From a virus, in IMG/VR virus record IMGVR_UViG_3300031963_001171, positions 1-20,078 of that record: a DNA stretch of 20,078 nt. One strand, given 5' to 3'. Each line of letters starts with the position of its first letter. Within the stretch, counting starts at the first letter, position 1. This document shows, piece after piece, positions 3 to 20,078 of the stretch. A model generated the notes under the pieces. It did no database searches. It was given only the letters and a program-made list of their open reading frames with translations, and had not been told where the DNA came from. Position numbers and translations under genes: made by a program.

Positions 3-392
3 GCACAACTACAAGCAACTGGTATCACTGAAGGTGAACAAGTTACTGAAGTTGAATTTGCTAATTTACAAAAATTTGTTAGCGAATTAGCTAAGGTTAG
101 AGAAGCTGGTGCTGCTTTAAAAACTAAGCTTGATGAAGAAATCACAGCTATTGAGGAAAAAATCAAAGCTGAAAAAGATAAAATCAAAGAAATGATTGGT
201 TTGATTTCTGAAGAGCCTAAAGAAGATAAAAAAAAAGCTAAAGTAGACGAAAAATTAAAACCGTCTATGGGTGCTGGTGCTTATGTTAAAGATTTTGAAA
301 AATCTAAAGCACCACAGTTTGCAGGTAAGTCTAAAGCCAAAAAACAAAAAATGGCTGTAGCTGCTTATTTAACTGCTAAAGATAAAAAATAA
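3..392 (+). CDS. Lysine-rich coiled-coil protein, 5' end outside window
   Basis: The reading frame is open from the left edge, so this is the last 129 residues of a longer protein. An internal ATG at 192 is not the likely start, because coding-like sequence in the same frame continues upstream to base 3. The visible part has a charged alpha-helical stretch (about residues 25-65, heptad-like, K/E-rich). It ends in a short basic tail in which the motif DFEKSKAPQFAGKSKAKKQK is followed by MAVAAYL. From memory, similar tails (DF..S.APQF.GKS..K...MA.AA) occur in uncharacterised proteins of T4-like marine phages, though I cannot confirm this here. The stop overlaps the next start (TAATG), implying translational coupling. 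Function is unknown; a virion-associated role is inferred from neighbours. Confidence 0.8.
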   Translation, partial: AQLQATGITEGEQVTEVEFANLQKFVSELAKVREAGAALKTKLDEEITAIEEKIKAEKDKIKEMIGLISEEPKEDKKKAKVDEKLKPSMGAGAYVKDFEKSKAPQFAGKSKAKKQKMAVAAYLTAKDKK

Positions 393-769
393 TGGAACAC
401 AACGCACTAATGGGTCAATTCGTTTCTACTTTAATGGCGTCTCGTACGCAGGCCCATATATTTCATCTTCAAACACCATCATTTGCTGCTCATAAAGCAC
501 TAAATGAATACTATGAAAATATAGTAGACATTATTGATGGTTTAGTTGAATCTTATCAAGGCAAGTATGGTATTATTACAGGATATGTTAATGTTGCTAT
601 ACAAGAGTATCAAAGCTGTGATGGTATCAAAATGTACTTCACCACACTTTGTGCTTTAATTGAAAAAAGTCGTTCAATGATTTGTCAAGATTCATATGTT
701 CAAAATCAAATTGATGAAGTAGTTGCTGAAATTAACTCATTACTTTACAAATTAAAGTATCTAAAATGA
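392..769 (+). CDS. Dps/ferritin-like four-helix protein
   Basis: This 125-residue, mostly helical protein has no signal peptide. Residues H22, H34, N38, D49 and E53 reproduce the spacing of the ferroxidase residues of Dps (E. coli H51, H63, D67, D78, E82; gaps 12, 4, 11, 4), with Asn in place of the third ligand. The context SFAAHKALNEYYENIVDIID also resembles the Dps/bacterioferritin helix B pattern. Dps proteins oxidise and store iron and protect DNA; whether this one binds iron is not known. It is shorter than Dps (about 160-170 residues). Some T4-like phages carry ferritin-like proteins of unknown function (I recall DUF5856), and this is probably one of them. The start overlaps the preceding stop (TAATG) and the stop overlaps the next start (ATGA), so it is translated as part of a polycistron. 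Confidence 0.8.
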   Translation: MEHNALMGQFVSTLMASRTQAHIFHLQTPSFAAHKALNEYYENIVDIIDGLVESYQGKYGIITGYVNVAIQEYQSCDGIKMYFTTLCALIEKSRSMICQDSYVQNQIDEVVAEINSLLYKLKYLK

Positions 770-1305
770 TAAAGTTACTTAGTTTATTAGAAGAACTAGA
801 TCCAGTAGGAAAAGAAGATGCTGATATCGACAATGATGGAGATACTGATAAAACAGATAAATATCTTTTAAATCGTCGTAAAGCAATAGCTGCTAACATT
901 AAAGAAGGCGATCATGAAGTAGCTATGGCAGTATCAAGTCTAGAATCAATTGCAGAAGCAATTGTGGAATTGAGACAAAAACTCGGTAACGTTGAGCGTA
1001 ATATTCCAGGATGGATTCAAGATCATATCGCTAAAGCTGAAAACTATATTGAGCAAGCAGCTCAAGGTTTTCACGAATTAAAAGGTGAAATGAATGAAAA
1101 CGTAAAGGTAAGAACCGAACCAGCTGGATTTAGAGGTGTTGAAAAAATTGTTTCATCTAAAGATAAAGCAGCTGTTGAACAAGCAGTTGCACAAATAGAA
1201 AGAGAATATCCAAGTGCTGGCTACGGAACAAACGTAAAGAAAATGTATCAAACACCTAGTGGCGTTTGGGTAGCTGTAGTAAGACACTCTACAACATCAG
1301 ATTAA
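766..1305 (+). CDS. EF-hand-loop and helical-domain protein, unassigned
   Basis: The protein has 179 residues. Residues 20-31 form a 12-residue EF-hand/dockerin-like loop (D20, D22, D24, G25, D26, D31), so calcium binding is plausible. Residues about 50-108 are a helical segment with the motif NIPGWIQDHIAKAENYIEQA. I recall related segments (LP.W.Q.KI..A.DY) in uncharacterised T4-like cyanophage and pelagiphage proteins. Residues 118-175 look like a small alpha/beta domain. The N-terminus MIKLLSLLEELDP contains LEE, a possible prohead-protease site. The start lies in an ATGA overlap with the upstream gene, and the stop overlaps the next start (TAATG). Function is unknown; a structural or packaged role is inferred from context. 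Confidence 0.8.
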   Translation: MIKLLSLLEELDPVGKEDADIDNDGDTDKTDKYLLNRRKAIAANIKEGDHEVAMAVSSLESIAEAIVELRQKLGNVERNIPGWIQDHIAKAENYIEQAAQGFHELKGEMNENVKVRTEPAGFRGVEKIVSSKDKAAVEQAVAQIEREYPSAGYGTNVKKMYQTPSGVWVAVVRHSTTSD

Positions 1306-2995: not shown

Positions 2996-4294
2996 ATGCA
3001 AAAGAAAATCGTAATCGTAGGCGCTGGCGTTGCAGGTATCAACGCAGCAACTAAATTAGTTGATAACGGCTATCCTGGTGAATTAATCACTATTATAGAC
3101 AAAGGTAATGATCCAATTAACCGTTTACCTGAAGAGGTAATGACAGGAATGTTAGGTGCTGGTGGTTGGTCTGATGGTAAATTAACTTACCATACAGCAA
3201 TTGGTGGTCAATTAAACAAGTATTGCGGTGATGAAAAAGCAATGCAACTAATGGATCAAGTTATTAGTAATTTTAGACGTTTCCATCCTAAACCAGAGGA
3301 AATATTCATGTCTGATCCACAAGAGGAACCTGAATTTATTAAACCATATTTTGGATTACGTATGTTTCCTGTATGGCATATTGGATCTAATTTCTTACAT
3401 GAAATTGCTAAAGCATGGTATTCATATTTGTTAGATAAAGGTGTTAAGTTTGAATGGAAAACTGAGGTTGAAGATATTGACTTTAATGATAATAGAATTT
3501 ATACACATAATGCTGACATGCAATATGATACTCTTATATTTGCAGTAGGTAAATCAGGTATTGATTTTGCTCAAAAATTATCTGATGAATATAGTTTCCC
3601 TACTGAACCTAAATCAGTACAAATTGGAGTTCGATTTGAAGCTCCACAAAAATATTTTCAAAAATTAATCGATGTAAGTTATGATTTCAAACTCTATCAG
3701 AAATTTGATAAGGTATCTCTCCGTAGCTTTTGTACTAACAACAATGCGGCTTATGTGGCTGTTGAGGAAACCTATGGCGATGTTAGTTACAATGGTCACG
3801 CTAAGAAAGGAAAGGAATTTGAAAACCAAATGACCAACTTTGGTATCTTAATGGAAATTAAGGGTATTGAAGATCCGTTTAAGTGGTCAAGAGATGTAGT
3901 ACAAAAACTACAAGAAAATGGTACAGGATTATATTATTCCCCAGGCAATACTCGCAAACCAGGATTAACATCAGAGGGTTCAACAGTATCAGCTACACAA
4001 ATAGGTTGGTTAGAGCTAATCAAAGTTACTCAAGTAATGGAGCCATATTTTGACTATGTTGTTAACTTTATTGATGATATGAATAAAGTATTTGAATTCG
4101 GAGATGATTATGGTATTTATATTCCTGAGGTAAAATATCTAAGTCCTGAACCACTAGTAAAATATGATAGCTTAGCATTAGCTAATTACCCTAACGTACA
4201 TTTTGTAGGTGATGCTTTATCAGCTCGTGGTATTACAGTAGCTGGTGCGCAAGGTATTTATGTTTCTGAATATTTATTGTCAAATAGATCATAA
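2996..4294 (+). CDS. FAD-dependent dehydrogenase-like protein
   Basis: The protein has 432 residues. The N-terminus is a dinucleotide-binding Rossmann motif (VIVGAGVAGINAA: G9, G11, G14), with an acidic residue, D35, ending strand 2 (IIDKG). Residues 54-70 contain GAGGWSDGKLT, and the C-terminus contains FVGDALSARGITVAGAQG, the second FAD-contacting element. Both resemble the uncharacterised NAD(FAD)-utilising dehydrogenase family (COG2509-like). No signal peptide or membrane segment is visible, so it is probably soluble. Substrate is unknown. It begins after a terminator and its stop overlaps the start of the next gene (TAATG), tying its expression to a head-type protein. Such an enzyme is unusual among phage head genes; it could be a host-derived auxiliary metabolic gene or a redox component of assembly. 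The fold call is secure, the role is not. Confidence 0.85.
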   Translation: MQKKIVIVGAGVAGINAATKLVDNGYPGELITIIDKGNDPINRLPEEVMTGMLGAGGWSDGKLTYHTAIGGQLNKYCGDEKAMQLMDQVISNFRRFHPKPEEIFMSDPQEEPEFIKPYFGLRMFPVWHIGSNFLHEIAKAWYSYLLDKGVKFEWKTEVEDIDFNDNRIYTHNADMQYDTLIFAVGKSGIDFAQKLSDEYSFPTEPKSVQIGVRFEAPQKYFQKLIDVSYDFKLYQKFDKVSLRSFCTNNNAAYVAVEETYGDVSYNGHAKKGKEFENQMTNFGILMEIKGIEDPFKWSRDVVQKLQENGTGLYYSPGNTRKPGLTSEGSTVSATQIGWLELIKVTQVMEPYFDYVVNFIDDMNKVFEFGDDYGIYIPEVKYLSPEPLVKYDSLALANYPNVHFVGDALSARGITVAGAQGIYVSEYLLSNRS

Positions 4295-6372: not shown

Positions 6373-6894
6373 ATGAAAATAGGATTAGCAGGTACAATGA
6401 GTGTAGGTAAAACTACATTAGCTAAAGCATTAGGTGAACTAGATCAATTTAAAAATCATAGTGTACAAACTGAACGTAGTAAATATCTTAGCAATTTAGG
6501 TATTCCATTAAATACTGATTCTACGTTGCGTGGTCAATTTGTATTTTTAGCTGAACGTGCTAGTGAATTACTTGTAGATAATATTATTACAGATCGTACT
6601 ATTTGGGATGTATGTGCTTTTACATTAAGTGCTAAATCAATATTGGATTGGGAAAAGCGTGATTTTGTAACAGCAGCTATGCATCTTAAACAATATTATG
6701 ATTATGTTATTTATGTTTCACCTGATGGTGTTGAAATGGAAGATAATGGTGTGCGTGAAACTGATATGGTCTATCGTGGTAAAATTGATACTGTAATACA
6801 AATGCTACTAAACGAATATACACCAACAAATTTAATAACTGTTAAGGGCAGTACGGAGGAACGTATTGCTACTATTATTTCTAACATTAAATAA
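6373..6894 (+). CDS. P-loop nucleoside/nucleotide kinase-like ATPase
   Basis: The protein has 173 residues starting at 6373; an in-frame ATG at 6319 would add an implausible tail overlapping the microprotein. A Walker A motif lies at residues 7-14 (GTMSVGKT). A DR motif follows in VDNIITDRTIWDVCAF, as in small kinases, and a lid-like stretch RETDMVYRGKIDTVIQMLL comes near the C-terminus. This arrangement fits the AAA_28/NadR-type nicotinamide-riboside or deoxynucleoside kinase group. The substrate cannot be read from sequence; phosphorylation of a nucleotide or NAD precursor in the cytoplasm is the best guess. It is linked to the upstream gene by TAATATG. Confidence 0.75.
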   Translation: MKIGLAGTMSVGKTTLAKALGELDQFKNHSVQTERSKYLSNLGIPLNTDSTLRGQFVFLAERASELLVDNIITDRTIWDVCAFTLSAKSILDWEKRDFVTAAMHLKQYYDYVIYVSPDGVEMEDNGVRETDMVYRGKIDTVIQMLLNEYTPTNLITVKGSTEERIATIISNIK

Positions 6895-9473: not shown

Positions 9474-11057
9474 ATGTCGCAACAGGCTGATATTAAAGAA
9501 ATAATAAAACAGGAGTATATTAAATGTGCAATGGATCCTGTACATTTCTTTAGAAAATATTGTTATATTACCCACCCAGTTAAAGGTAGAACACTATTTC
9601 ATCTTTATCCGTTTCAGGAGGCTACACTAACTGATTTTAGAAATAATCGATTTTCAATTGTAAATAAATCTCGCCAGTTAGGTATCTCCACATTAGTAGC
9701 AGGTTATTCTTTGTGGACAATGTTGTTTAATAAAGATAAAACTGTATTGTGTATAGCTACTAAACAAGAAACCGCTCGTGGGATGGTTGAGAAGGTACAA
9801 TTCATGTATGAAAACTTACCTTCATGGCTTAAGGGTAATCAAAAACCAATATCAAATAATAAATTATCCTTCCAGTTAGCTAATAACTCCAGAATTGTAG
9901 CTACATCAGCTGCCTCAGATGCAGGTCGATCCTACGCCGTATCTTTGTTACTAATAGATGAGGCTGCGTTTATTGAAGGTATTGATAAAATTTATACGAG
10001 TATTAAACCAACCATTGCAACGGGAGGAGGAATTATAGCATTATCCTCTCCAAATGGTATTGGTAACTGGTTTCATAAAACATATGCTGAGGCTCAAATT
10101 GGTAAAAACGACTTTTATCCAATTGAGCTAAAATGGAATTTACATCCTGATAGAGATGAGGCTTGGGAGCTACGTGAGCGTGCTAACATGTCACCACGTG
10201 AATTTGCTCAAGAGTATGATTGTGACTTCCTTGGTTCTGGTAACTCAGTAATTGAACCTGATAATCTATCATTTTATGAACAAACGTACATCCAGGAACC
10301 TGTCGAGCGCCGCTTTATGGGTGGCGACTTTTGGATATTTCAGTATCCTGACTATACTAGGAATTATATTATTAGCGCTGACGTTGCTCGCGGTGATGGT
10401 TCAGACTACTCTGCGTTTCACGTTATTGATGTGGACTCGTGTGAGCAAGTGGCTGAGTATAAATCACAAATCGATACTCGTTCCTATGGTAATATGCTTG
10501 TTTCTGTTGCTAGTGAATATAATAATGCTTTACTTGTGGTTGAAAATGCAAACGTGGGTTGGGACGTCGTTAATACGATAATTGAAAAAGGGTATCAAAA
10601 TATGTATTATTCACCTCGTGCTTATGGTGAAATGCAAATGGATAAATGGATGGCTAAGATGGGAAGTGATCAAACAGTTCCTGGATTTACTACATCAGTA
10701 AAGACAAGACCACTTGTTGTCTCCAAGATGGAGGCGTATATTCGAGATAGAGCATTCATCTTTCGATCTAAAAGATTGTTAGAGGAGTTGCGTGTATTTA
10801 TTTGGAATAATGGTAAAGCACAAGCCCAAACAGGTTATAATGATGACTTAGTTATGGCTTTAGGTATTGGATTATTTACTAGAGATACTGGTGTTAAGTT
10901 CGCTCAACAAGGTATGGATTTAACCCGATTATCTATTAATAATATATCTAATGCTCAAAATCCAGCAATGCTTCCACCATCACTACCAAACGGTGCATCA
11001 AATCCATATATAGCCGAAACCCCGTACGGTTTTGAAGATTTTAGATGGGTGCTTTAA
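9474..11057 (+). CDS. terL: Terminase large subunit (gp17-like)
   Basis: The protein has 527 residues and is a packaging motor that cuts concatemeric DNA and pumps it through the portal. The ATPase half contains a P-loop NKSRQLGIST (residues 64-73) lacking Lys at the usual GK(S/T) position (Ile71), with K65 or R67 available as the displaced basic residue. It also has Walker B SLLLIDEAAF (D162, E163) and a coupling motif SSPNG (191-195). The nuclease half has D303 (SADVARGDGSD), E357 (VVENAN) and D457/D458 (GYNDDLVMA), the acidic triad of terminase RNase-H-like nucleases. Length is somewhat below T4 gp17 (610). It follows the strong terminator, with its own candidate promoter and no Shine-Dalgarno. 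Identification is firm. Confidence 0.97.
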   Translation: MSQQADIKEIIKQEYIKCAMDPVHFFRKYCYITHPVKGRTLFHLYPFQEATLTDFRNNRFSIVNKSRQLGISTLVAGYSLWTMLFNKDKTVLCIATKQETARGMVEKVQFMYENLPSWLKGNQKPISNNKLSFQLANNSRIVATSAASDAGRSYAVSLLLIDEAAFIEGIDKIYTSIKPTIATGGGIIALSSPNGIGNWFHKTYAEAQIGKNDFYPIELKWNLHPDRDEAWELRERANMSPREFAQEYDCDFLGSGNSVIEPDNLSFYEQTYIQEPVERRFMGGDFWIFQYPDYTRNYIISADVARGDGSDYSAFHVIDVDSCEQVAEYKSQIDTRSYGNMLVSVASEYNNALLVVENANVGWDVVNTIIEKGYQNMYYSPRAYGEMQMDKWMAKMGSDQTVPGFTTSVKTRPLVVSKMEAYIRDRAFIFRSKRLLEELRVFIWNNGKAQAQTGYNDDLVMALGIGLFTRDTGVKFAQQGMDLTRLSINNISNAQNPAMLPPSLPNGASNPYIAETPYGFEDFRWVL

Positions 11058-14941: not shown

Positions 14942-16411
14942 ATGAAAAGTATAGCTAATCAATACCGTGATTTAAAAGAAGGCAAATTATCACAATTTAA
15001 TTTTATGCGTAATTTACGCATGACAATGCCTCAGTACATTACTAATACAACTTCATTTAATGATGCTGTTAGAATTTTAAAAAGCAAAAGTATTTTAACT
15101 GAAGCTTTTGATCCTAGAGATGCTGCTGACACTGCTGCTGAGGAATTAGCCATAGCAGCTGGTGATTATGATGCTGCTGTTGGGATGTTACAAGATGAAA
15201 TGGGATTATCATTTAGCGCTGCTTCAGCCATTGCTGCTAGAGTTTATGAACCAGAACCAATATCTGGTGAGGAAGATTATATGGAAGATGAAATGCCTAG
15301 AGATGATTTTCCTATGTCCGATTACAATGACGGAGAGTTTTGGGAAGCTAAAGTAGAAGAATCACCAAAACCTAAAGCAGATATCTACGGTGAAGATCCC
15401 AATCTAGATGTTTATGCTGATAAAGACATTCCAGGACAAGGAATGACTGAAAATGAAGAAGATGATGATGCTGAAACACTTGCTATGATTGATAAAATTG
15501 AACAAGAAATGGCTGGTGAAGAGGCTGTAAAAGCTCAATACGATATAACTGAGGCTAAACAAAAAGTAGATGCTGATCGTGTTCATCCACAAGAATTAAG
15601 AATGGGTATTAAAGTTGAAATGGAGCATACAAAAGATGCTGAAAAAGCTAAAAAAATTGCTTTAGATCATTTAGCTGAAAATCCATTCTACTATACTCAA
15701 CTTAAATTATCTGGTGTTGATGTTAAAGCAACCCCAAATAAAGAGAAAAAAGCTATCGCTAAGAAAAAAGACGAAACTGAATTAGTAGATAAGGCTAATC
15801 AAATGAAGCCTGTTAAAGGTGTTGAAAAAGCTAAAGCATCTGCTAATAAAGCTTCTAAAGAAACTAATAAGCCTGTTAAAGGTATTTCATTAATGTCACT
15901 TATAGCTAAAACATCTCGTGGCGTTAAAAAAATGGAACCAACAGGTGAAAAAATGAAGGTTGTTAAAGAAGATTATCAATCATTCCTCGCGCAAAAAAAA
16001 AGAGAAGAAGAAGCTGCTGAAACATACGGTGGGTTTAAAAGAGGAGATAAAGTAATGATTGATCCTGATGCTGCTAAAGCTACAGGATTAAAAGCAGGTA
16101 AGGTTTATACTATTACTAATTTCAGAGTTTATAAAGCAGGATCTATATTACAAAACGTAGATGCTTTATTAGATAATGGCGAAGAAATCAACGTAGATTA
16201 TATATTTAAAGCTCCTAAAGTATTTACTTCATCTACTAATTTAGGTGGATATGATTTAAATAAACTTAAAGAAATGGTTCGTGAAGTATTAGCTGAAATG
16301 GAAAGTGATGATGAAGTAACAGCTGATGTTGCTTTAGGAATGGATGAAACAATGGATGGACGCGATAATTTAACTGATACTGCTGGTCACCAACTAGATG
16401 AAAATAAATAA
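14942..16411 (+). CDS. Multidomain head-region protein with DUF5661-like segment
   Basis: The protein has 489 residues. The N-terminal 55 are helical and include ILTEAFD, a good prohead-protease site (LTE before Ala). Residues 100-205 are highly acidic and probably disordered. Residues 208-257 (HPQELRMGIKVEMEHTKDAE, then IALDHLAENPFYYTQL) match my memory of the small DUF5661 helical family, function unknown. Residues 260-345 are Lys-rich. Residues 363-425 look like a KOW/SH3-type beta barrel (FKRGDKVMI ... GKVYTITNFRV). Residues 439-454 repeat the helix tag (DLNKLKEMVREVLAEME). It lies directly before the protease gene, joined by TAATATG. The role may be in the core or as a packaged substrate; unproven. 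Confidence 0.75.
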   Translation: MKSIANQYRDLKEGKLSQFNFMRNLRMTMPQYITNTTSFNDAVRILKSKSILTEAFDPRDAADTAAEELAIAAGDYDAAVGMLQDEMGLSFSAASAIAARVYEPEPISGEEDYMEDEMPRDDFPMSDYNDGEFWEAKVEESPKPKADIYGEDPNLDVYADKDIPGQGMTENEEDDDAETLAMIDKIEQEMAGEEAVKAQYDITEAKQKVDADRVHPQELRMGIKVEMEHTKDAEKAKKIALDHLAENPFYYTQLKLSGVDVKATPNKEKKAIAKKKDETELVDKANQMKPVKGVEKAKASANKASKETNKPVKGISLMSLIAKTSRGVKKMEPTGEKMKVVKEDYQSFLAQKKREEEAAETYGGFKRGDKVMIDPDAAKATGLKAGKVYTITNFRVYKAGSILQNVDALLDNGEEINVDYIFKAPKVFTSSTNLGGYDLNKLKEMVREVLAEMESDDEVTADVALGMDETMDGRDNLTDTAGHQLDENK

Positions 16412-16412
16412 T

Positions 16413-17024
16413 ATGAGCAAATCATTATTAATAGATCACACACCATTTCAAGCAGCTAAGCTTACCTTAGTTGAAGGTAAAGGTGCTAAAGCTGGTTTAA
16501 CTACCTTAATAGGTAAATTACAAGAAGCTGAACAAAAAAACGGTAATGGTCGTGTATATCCACGTGAAGTACTAGAGCGTGAAGTTCAAAAATACGCTGA
16601 AGGACCAATTAAAACACGTACTGCTTTAGGTGAATTAGACCATCCTGAAGCATCTGTTGTTAACCTTGCAAATACTTCACATGTTATTACAGAGGTATGG
16701 TGGAATGGTAATGACTTAATGGGTAAATTAGAATTGTTACCTACCCCAAGTGGTAACATTGCTAAAGCACTTGTATTATCAGGTATTCCACTTGGTATTT
16801 CATCTCGTGGTATGGGTAGTGTTAAACAATTAGGTGAAACAGTTGAGGTACAAGATGATTTTGAATTATTGTGTTGGGATTTGGTATCAGTACCATCAAC
16901 ACCTCAAGCATATATGCAACTTGCTGAATCAAAGCAGTTTGCTTCTATTAAAGATTATAGTAAAGTTAATGAATTAATTACTGAAATTATTTGCAGCCAA
17001 ACAGGAGTTTGTCCTCTCTGCTAA
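16413..17024 (+). CDS. Prohead core protease (gp21-like)
   Basis: The protein has 203 residues from the ATG at 16413, which follows the previous stop as TAATATG; an in-frame ATG at 16398 would overlap the upstream gene. T4 gp21 has 212. The typical motif QKNGNGRVYPREVL precedes the catalytic His77 in GELDHPEA and the nucleophile Ser in GISSRGMG (S130 or S131), the herpesvirus-assemblin-like/S78-type protease layout. It digests the scaffold and trims capsid proteins at (L/I)xE sites after prohead assembly. The C-terminus contains ITE followed by Ile (189-192), suggesting self-cleavage, and then an odd cysteine-rich tail (CSQTGVCPLC). Identification is firm. Confidence 0.95.
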   Translation: MSKSLLIDHTPFQAAKLTLVEGKGAKAGLTTLIGKLQEAEQKNGNGRVYPREVLEREVQKYAEGPIKTRTALGELDHPEASVVNLANTSHVITEVWWNGNDLMGKLELLPTPSGNIAKALVLSGIPLGISSRGMGSVKQLGETVEVQDDFELLCWDLVSVPSTPQAYMQLAESKQFASIKDYSKVNELITEIICSQTGVCPLC

Positions 17025-18567: not shown

Positions 18568-20078
18568 ATGAACATTCAATCATTATTAGAGTCATCTAAC
18601 CAATACAAAGTTGTTGCTGATGACGCCAAAAAACTCAACTCTAAGTGGGCCAAATCTGGTCTCTTAGAAGGTTTGAAGGGTGAGACAGATAAAAACACAA
18701 TGGCTGTTCTCCTTGAAAACCAAGCTAAGCAATTAGTAACTGAAGCTTCTTCTACTGGTACTGCTACCATCGGTGGTGGTGCTTACGCACAGGAAGCTTG
18801 GAACGGTGTTGCTTTACCATTAGTTCGCCGTGTATTCGGTGAAATCGCTGCTAAAGAATTCGTTAGCGTACAACCAATGAACTTACCTTCTGGTCTTGTA
18901 TTCTATCTAGATTTCAAATATGGTAGCAATTTCCCTGATCCATTTACTCAAAATGGTTCTTTATATGGTGCTAACCAAACTACTAACGTAACTGATATTA
19001 CTTCTCAGTCCCTTTATGGTGCTGGTCGTTTTGGTTACTCTATCAACCAATTTTCAGCTTCTGTAACTAACGCTGGTACAGCTTCTGCTACTTGGGCTGA
19101 TTTCAACTTCGATTCAGCTTATTCAGCTTCTGCTGCTGCTGGTTCTTGGAAGAAAGTATTAGTTCCATTAGCTTCTACTTTGAATGCTGATCAGAATGGT
19201 GTTCGTGCTTTCACAATCTCTTCTGGTTCTACTATCACTGTAGACACTCCATTACAAGCTTTCACTACTGTAACTAATAACACTGCTTCTTTCGTTGTTA
19301 CTGGTTCTTCAGTTGCTGCTGACATGAGTCCAGCTGCTGCTACTGTACGCTTGTTCTACAACGAACAACCAACTTCTACTGATCGTGGTGATTTTGAAGA
19401 TGCTTCTGGTGGTGGTTTCCCAAGTGCTAACTCTACAGCTAATGGTACTCCAACAACTGCTATCGCTATCCCAGAAATCAACGTACAGTTGAAATCTGAA
19501 CCAATTGTTGCTAAAACTCGTAAGTTAAAAGCACAATGGACTCCAGAATTCGCTCAGGACTTAAACGCTTACCATAGCGTAGATGCTGAAGCTGAATTAA
19601 CTGGTATCTTATCTCAGTACATCTCTATGGAAATCGACCTCGAAATCTTAGATATGTTGATCGAGAATGCTTTCACAGTTGATTACTGGTCTGCTATTAA
19701 CAACACAGCTATTAACTCTGCAGCTACTGCTTTCGAAGCTTTAGCTAGTGGTTACTACAACACACAAGGTGGATGGTTCCAAACTTTAGGTACTAAATTA
19801 CAGAAAGTTTCTAACAAGATCCATCAGTTGACTTTACGTGGTGGTGCTAACTTCCTCGTAACTTCTCCAACTGTTGCTACTATCTTAGAATCAATCCCAG
19901 GATTTGCTTCTGATGGTGACGGTGAGAAAATGGAATTCAACTTCGGTATCCAGAAGGTTGGTTCATTAAACAGCCGTTATAAGGTTTACAAAAACCCTTA
20001 TATGACTGAGAACGTAATCTTAATGGGTTACAAAGGTGCTCAATTCCTTGAGTGTGGTGCTGTATTTGCTCCATATGT
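18568..20078 (+). CDS. Major capsid protein (gp23-like), 3' end outside window
   Basis: The frame starts at 18568 and is open to the right edge (503 codons visible). By comparison with T4 gp23 (521 residues) only about 30 residues are probably missing. The N-terminal 59 residues match the T4 delta region (NTMAVLLENQAKQLVTEA), with the likely prohead-protease cut after E59 (VTE before Ala). Core motifs are EFVSVQPMNLPSGLVFYL, TRKLKAQWTPEFAQDL with AEAELTGILSQYISMEI, and NVILMGYKGAQ. Residues about 150-305 form a long Ser/Thr/Ala-rich beta-like segment with little resemblance to T4, probably a surface insertion domain. It follows the scaffold gene by 26 nt with no Shine-Dalgarno and favours C-ending codons. 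Confidence 0.96.
   Translation, partial: MNIQSLLESSNQYKVVADDAKKLNSKWAKSGLLEGLKGETDKNTMAVLLENQAKQLVTEASSTGTATIGGGAYAQEAWNGVALPLVRRVFGEIAAKEFVSVQPMNLPSGLVFYLDFKYGSNFPDPFTQNGSLYGANQTTNVTDITSQSLYGAGRFGYSINQFSASVTNAGTASATWADFNFDSAYSASAAAGSWKKVLVPLASTLNADQNGVRAFTISSGSTITVDTPLQAFTTVTNNTASFVVTGSSVAADMSPAAATVRLFYNEQPTSTDRGDFEDASGGGFPSANSTANGTPTTAIAIPEINVQLKSEPIVAKTRKLKAQWTPEFAQDLNAYHSVDAEAELTGILSQYISMEIDLEILDMLIENAFTVDYWSAINNTAINSAATAFEALASGYYNTQGGWFQTLGTKLQKVSNKIHQLTLRGGANFLVTSPTVATILESIPGFASDGDGEKMEFNFGIQKVGSLNSRYKVYKNPYMTENVILMGYKGAQFLECGAVFAPY

What the first reader, a model, noticed from the sequence alone, without database searches (positions are those of the whole stretch)
392..769. Dps/ferritin-like protein with conserved ferroxidase spacing in a phage head gene cluster
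H22, H34, N38, D49 and E53 keep the exact 12-4-11-4 spacing of the Dps ferroxidase residues, with one ligand changed to Asn. A ferritin-like protein co-translated with virion-type genes could protect packaged or host DNA from iron-driven damage, or could be a degenerate fold reused structurally.
Basis: partly seen in the sequence, partly recalled or inferred. Interest (0 to 1): 0.68.

Follow-up and report, generated by a model that had tools for sequence, protein, structure and literature searches.

The report
Phage Dps-like mini-ferritin (DUF5856, T4 RI.-1)
The gene encodes a small phage relative of the bacterial iron-handling protein Dps that keeps the four key iron-site residues; it belongs to a widespread, little-studied phage family that includes T4's lysis-inhibition accessory protein RI.-1 and a protein found by mass spectrometry in purified virions of other phages.

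Summary
ORF 392-769 (125 aa) is a member of Pfam DUF5856 / PHROG 858. It is predicted with high confidence as a four-helix bundle (pLDDT 96.3), and its best solved-structure matches are Dps proteins. H25, H34, D49 and E53 are invariant in 120 of 120 distinct homologues, while position 38 varies (N/Q/G/D/R), so the Asn is not a lost ligand. T4 RI.-1, a lysis-inhibition accessory protein, is in the same family. Ackermannviridae members were found in virions by mass spectrometry; one was already predicted 'ferritin' in 2024. Differences from true Dps: no BC helix, no Lys-rich tail, no Pfam Ferritin hit. Most likely it is a minimal Dps-type iron-binding/ferroxidase dimer protecting phage DNA during infection or in the particle. 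Fold (predicted), family and ligand conservation are shown; activity is inferred. New member of a known kind.

The parts
392..769 (+). DUF5856 / PHROG 858 Dps-like protein P0001, 125 aa; predicted helices at residues 2-27, 31-59, 76-93, 101-123
   Evidence: Pfam PF19174 67.4 bits (cut-off 34.6); phrog_858 E 1.5e-21; AlphaFold2 pLDDT 96.3; Dps matches
455..457 (+). codon of H22: conserved His one turn before the ligand; not the Dps ligand equivalent
   Evidence: 116/120 His, replaced by Q or K in three; maps to E. coli Dps K48 in the gapless structural register
464..466 (+). codon of H25: equivalent of Dps ferroxidase His (E. coli H51)
   Evidence: 120/120 invariant; register
491..493 (+). codon of H34: equivalent of second ferroxidase His (E. 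coli H63)
   Evidence: 120/120 invariant; alignment
503..505 (+). codon of N38: equivalent of E. coli D67; variable in the family
   Evidence: N 71, Q 19, G 18, D 10, R 2 of 120
536..538 (+). codon of D49: equivalent of ferroxidase Asp (E. coli D78)
   Evidence: 120/120 invariant
548..550 (+). codon of E53: equivalent of ferroxidase Glu (E. coli E82)
   Evidence: 120/120 invariant
3..392 (+). upstream gene (C-terminal part, open at the window edge), stop overlaps the DUF5856 start codon; no family match
   Evidence: sequence; no PHROG match
766..1305 (+). downstream overlapping gene with an EF-hand/dockerin-like DxDNDGDxDKxDKYLxxRRxAI motif
   Evidence: phrog_4359 E 1.9e-13 and relatives; Dockerin_1 E 0.03, below cut-off
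9474..11057 (+). T4-type terminase large subunit
   Evidence: phrog_2 E 1.6e-50, PF03237
11093..12979 (+). T4-type portal protein (gp20)
   Evidence: PF07230 E 9.5e-67
16398..17024 (+). head maturation protease
   Evidence: phrog_207 E 4e-54
18568..20076 (+). major head protein, runs off the window end
   Evidence: phrog_138 E 3.5e-63

Best explanation
The gene encodes a phage mini-ferritin of Dps type. It is a ~120-residue four-helix bundle that pairs as a two-fold dimer, so that H25 and H34 of one subunit and D49 and E53 of the partner build two iron-binding/ferroxidase sites at the interface, as in Dps. It binds and oxidises Fe(II) during infection, and in some phages also in the particle, and so limits Fenton damage to phage DNA and proteins. 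Shown: fold (predicted at high confidence), family, and invariance of the four ligands. Inferred: dimer, metal binding, ferroxidase activity, protective role, and presence in this phage's virion.
For: AlphaFold2 model pLDDT 96.3, pTM 0.89, four helices. Foldseek top PDB hits are Dps with TM mostly 0.66-0.80, though E is only 0.018 at best. VIA Z 13.6, rmsd 2.6, 125 residues aligned to MsDps2. The family profile finds HP-NAP Dps at E 7e-5 and MrgA at 0.03. H25, H34, D49 and E53 are 120/120 invariant, including T4 RI.-1, Ackermannviridae, jumbo and Caulobacter phages. H34 and D49/E53 lie 15 and 19 residues apart on one helix (roughly 22 A or more), too far to form one site within a monomer, so joint invariance argues for a Dps-like two-subunit site (inference). 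Virion mass spectrometry: LIMEstone1 ORF78, 3 unique peptides, 28% coverage; Sajous1 gp217, 10 spectra from CsCl-purified particles, a homologue 91% identical to ORF78.
Against: No BC helix (residues 60-75 not helical in the model); as I recall, that helix lines the two-fold interface in Dps. No Pfam Ferritin match for P0001. The fifth acidic ligand position is mostly not acidic. No activity or oligomer data exist. Infection of TonB and FeoB mutants was unchanged, so an iron-uptake entry role is not supported. Some mass-spectrometry hits could be carry-over. T4 data tie RI.-1 to lysis timing, not iron. Homologue retrieval was partly seeded on the H34 region, which biases that column.
Confidence: 0.5

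Rival explanations
1. Lysis-timing accessory: the family's main role is that of T4 RI.-1, tuning lysis inhibition, with the metal site used as a sensor of iron or oxidation state, or only for stability.
For: T4 RI.-1 is a DUF5856 member at E 5e-33 in an operon with rI. Its over-expression slightly delayed lysis-inhibition collapse (Golec et al. 2010, as reviewed in PMC6832632). Neighbours are a holin in P19250A, an endolysin in Caulobacter GB2A and rI in S16.
Against: The window copy lies upstream of packaging/head genes with no lysis gene recognised nearby. In 41 diverse loci, lysis-type domains were rare among 150 neighbours. RaK2 has the gene but lacks T holin and RI. The RI.-1 effect was slight and from over-expression.
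Confidence: 0.2
2. Structural or scaffold protein: the ferritin fold is reused as a virion part, and the conserved residues hold a structural metal without iron chemistry.
For: Virion mass spectrometry in LIMEstone1 and Sajous1. The window gene overlaps its neighbours in a region with terminase, portal, protease and capsid genes. In DSL-LC05 it directly follows the portal gene.
Against: Context is not tied to structural genes across the family. A purely structural role does not by itself require an invariant His2-Asp-Glu set matching Dps.
Confidence: 0.18
3. Ferrojan-horse entry: iron carried by the protein on the tail lets the phage exploit host iron uptake receptors.
For: Proposed for Sajous1 gp214-217 in PMC10892097.
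Against: The same paper found unchanged infection of TonB and FeoB mutants. No evidence here places the protein on the tail.
Confidence: 0.03
4. DNA-binding transcription regulator, as the PHROG/RefSeq label 'starvation-inducible transcriptional regulator' suggests.
For: The PHROG 858 label, which probably derives from remote Dps similarity.
Against: No DNA-binding domain found. Net charge is about -4, and the first 30 residues hold one basic and one acidic residue, so there is no Dps-like Lys tail.
Confidence: 0.04

Closest known systems
Pfam PF19174 DUF5856 / PHROG 858 (phage family including T4 RI.-1)
   Same: Full-length match above the curated cut-off; same length and invariant residues
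   Different: Only the 3-residue-short A-B loop and Asn at position 38, both common within the family
Dps (E. coli Dps, HP-NAP, MrgA, M. smegmatis Dps; Pfam Ferritin PF00210)
   Same: Four-helix bundle, Z 13.6 / rmsd 2.6 over 125 residues to MsDps2; equivalents of the two His, Asp and Glu ferroxidase ligands
   Different: Shorter (125 vs about 145-175 aa), no BC helix, no Lys-rich N-terminal tail, below Pfam Ferritin detection, acidic fifth ligand not kept
Ackermannviridae virion protein LIMEstone1 ORF78 / Sajous1 gp217 ('Ferritin' by Phyre2)
   Same: Same DUF5856 family, same four ligands, small ~120 aa protein
   Different: Different phage group; located beside primase gp61 and unknown structural genes instead of terminase/portal
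Other phage Dps/ferritin-like genes (gut Gratiaviridae, Lactobacillus phages; PMC8008677)
   Same: Phage-borne Dps-type proteins with a proposed oxidative-stress role
   Different: Described as DPS-family enzymes by that paper; not compared by sequence here

Membership tests
DUF5856 (PF19174) / T4 RI.-1 family | Score above the curated Pfam cut-off over the full model | tested here: met
   67.4 bits vs 34.6, model 1-94/94
DUF5856 (PF19174) / T4 RI.-1 family | T4 RI.-1 itself belongs to the family | tested here: met
   E 5e-33
DUF5856 (PF19174) / T4 RI.-1 family | Operon with rI antiholin and role in lysis inhibition (true of T4, not of the whole family) | tested here: inconclusive
   No rI or other lysis gene recognised among the scanned window genes, but the window is a 20 kb fragment; function itself not testable
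Dps (ferritin superfamily) | Four-helix bundle of Dps topology | tested here: met
   Model pLDDT 96.3; best PDB matches are Dps
Dps (ferritin superfamily) | Ferroxidase ligands His, His, Asp, Glu | tested here: met
   H25, H34, D49, E53 invariant in 120/120, aligned to Dps ligands
Dps (ferritin superfamily) | Fifth acidic residue at His+4 (E. coli D67) | tested here: not met
   N38 here; N/Q/G/D/R in the family
Dps (ferritin superfamily) | Short BC helix between helices B and C | tested here: not met
   Residues 60-75 not helical; 125 model residues span 140 Dps residues
Dps (ferritin superfamily) | Match to Pfam Ferritin PF00210 above cut-off | tested here: not met
   No match for P0001; one relative matches only at E 0.008
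Dps (ferritin superfamily) | Lys-rich N-terminal DNA-binding tail (many but not all Dps) | tested here: not met
   One basic residue in the first 30
Dps (ferritin superfamily) | Dodecameric shell with inter-subunit ferroxidase sites and iron core | not testable with these tools
   No multimer modelling or biochemistry available

The most novel reading that the evidence does not exclude
DUF5856, including T4 RI.-1, is a distinct minimal class of Dps-type ferroxidase carried by hundreds of phages and possibly giant viruses. It works as a bare dimer without a shell or DNA tail, travels in the virion of some phages, and links cellular iron or oxidant state to lysis timing in others.
Probability: 0.12. 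Interest if true: 0.75.

Novelty: new member of a known kind. Interest (0 to 1): 0.45.

Why it matters
The family is named 'unknown function' in Pfam yet was found in about 1,000 phage records, including T4, the best-studied large phage. A strictly conserved Dps ligand set gives a concrete, testable biochemical hypothesis for T4 RI.-1, whose role in lysis inhibition is undefined, and for an unexplained virion protein of Ackermannviridae. It would make phage-borne iron oxidation far more common than the few phage Dps genes reported so far.

Tried and rejected
A second structure prediction, of the long-loop member L029 without an alignment, gave a poor model (pLDDT 63) and did not help the register question. 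A general link to lysis genes: seen in S16, P19250A and GB2A, but not supported in the wider neighbour scan. A general link to head genes: terminase-like PHROG models each matched at most 5, and the T4-type portal model 3, of 150 neighbour genes from 41 loci, so local. Literature on 'DUF5856' by name: none held. Golec et al. 2010 could not be read; its results are taken from a review. Plasmids: no homologue. A viral scan seeded on the Microcystis phage member found nothing.

Full report
What is there. Its start overlaps the stop of the upstream gene and its stop overlaps the start of the downstream gene. It evolves under purifying selection: dN/dS is about 0.16 and 0.10 against two relatives of 82% and about 86% identity. 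G000 is a virus record of only 20,078 bases, so the window is probably a fragment.

Family. P0001 matches Pfam DUF5856 (PF19174) with 67.4 bits against a cut-off of 34.6 and PHROG 858, labelled 'starvation-inducible transcriptional regulator'. tblastn finds 1,003 phage records with a homologue; viral metagenome scans gave many more. None was found on plasmids, and one turned up in a bacterial genome scan. T4 RI.-1 (E 5e-33), LIMEstone1 ORF78, Sajous1 gp217 and Caulobacter, Erwinia and Microcystis phage proteins are all DUF5856 members.

Fold. With 69 aligned homologues the model has mean pLDDT 96.3 and helices at 2-27, 31-59, 76-93 and 101-123. Foldseek's best PDB hits are Dps proteins with TM mostly 0.66-0.80, though the best E-values are only about 0.02. 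VIA-align gives Z 13.6, rmsd 2.6 over 125 residues to M. smegmatis Dps2 and 12.6 to E. coli Dps; other ferritin-like proteins (YciF, bacterioferritin) score close behind. The tool warns that helical bundles can reach Z 13 without kinship, so I weigh it together with the sequence evidence: the family profile finds HP-NAP at E 7e-5, CAIP at 0.014 and MrgA at 0.031 in the PDB.

Ligands and register. The spacing is exact and rare in shuffles (4 in 100,000). However, three lines put H25 at the first Dps ligand. First, the structural alignment pairs model residue 1 with E. coli Dps residue 27; continued without gaps along the single helix A this pairs H25 with H51 and L26 with W52 (the tool reports range ends only, so the gapless step is an inference). 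Second, the profile alignments to HP-NAP, CAIP and MrgA pair H25 with the 'HW' His and place a 3-residue gap in the A-B loop. Third, 34 of 120 distinct homologues have that longer loop with H25-H34 exactly 12 apart (one more has 13), as in Dps. H25 is invariant in 120/120, whereas H22 is replaced in three. One contrary result: hhalign with E. coli Dps alone gives the gapless H22 register. H34, D49 and E53 are also 120/120. Position 38 is N 71, Q 19, G 18, D 10, R 2, so it is not a conserved ligand. Caveat: the metagenome homologues were seeded partly on the H34 motif; the annotated phage members, found by BLAST, show the same pattern.

Inference on architecture. H34 and D49/E53 lie on the same helix 15 and 19 residues apart, so they cannot form one site within a monomer. 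In Dps they meet across a two-fold dimer (established knowledge of the family). Their joint invariance therefore argues that DUF5856 forms such a dimer. No multimer model could be made to test this. The BC helix that, as I recall, lines this interface in Dps is missing (residues 60-75), and there is no Lys-rich tail. So the protein is Dps-like, not a Dps by the usual definition.

Virion and infection evidence in relatives. LIMEstone1 ORF78 was found in virions by mass spectrometry, with 3 unique peptides and 28% coverage (PMC3296691; the ORF is the DUF5856 gene). Sajous1 gp217 gave 10 spectra from CsCl-purified particles, was predicted 'Ferritin' by Phyre2, and a ferrojan-horse role was proposed; TonB and FeoB mutants were infected normally (PMC10892097). 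Its sequence is 91% identical to LIMEstone1 ORF78. T4 rI.-1 over-expression slightly delayed lysis-inhibition collapse (review PMC6832632). RaK2 carries a homologue without the T4 lysis-inhibition genes (PMC3622015). Gut phages with Dps-like genes have been proposed to protect hosts from oxidative damage (PMC8008677).

Context. In the window, terminase, portal, head protease and major capsid genes lie 9-20 kb downstream on the same strand, so 'head gene cluster' is fair for the region, though the immediate neighbours have no known function. Across the family the context varies: rI in S16, holin in P19250A, endolysin in Caulobacter GB2A, portal in DSL-LC05, RusA in MW202520, primase in Ackermannviridae, glycosyltransferases in Mel-JY01. 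A scan of 150 neighbour genes from 41 loci gave a scatter of terminase, portal, nucleotidase and unknown families. Context therefore does not fix the function.

Verdict. The fold (predicted), the family and the conserved ligand set are shown computationally; iron chemistry is likely but untested. The ferritin prediction for one family member is already published, and the family label in PHROGs hints at Dps. What I did not find stated in the papers searched is the strict conservation of the four ligands across the family including T4 RI.-1, and the corrected register.

Noticed in passing
window 766-1305, and genes flanking homologues in many loci: A DADIDNDGDTDKTDKYLLNRRKAI stretch resembling an EF-hand/dockerin calcium loop (phrog_4359, 38880, 3326, 22379, 764) recurs in genes on either side of DUF5856 homologues.
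   Followed up: partly
window 2996-4294: A phage-encoded FAD/NAD(P)-dependent oxidoreductase (Pyr_redox_2, phrog_12409 dehydrogenase) among virion-type genes, unusual and possibly redox-related.
   Followed up: no
BFVD fold hits A0A481ZC29, A0A7D3V608: Structural matches to proteins of giant viruses (Pithovirus LCPAC404 TM 0.80, Fadolivirus TM 0.86) suggest the fold family may extend to eukaryotic viruses.
   Followed up: no
L060 5001-5375: A DUF5856 homologue with an in-frame stop codon inside the match.
   Followed up: no
downstream neighbours in 29 of 83 loci: The unknown family phrog_7595 is the commonest match among genes directly downstream of DUF5856 homologues.
   Followed up: no
window 6376-6891: A thymidylate-kinase-like nucleotide kinase (phrog_2107) within the late gene region.
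   Followed up: no
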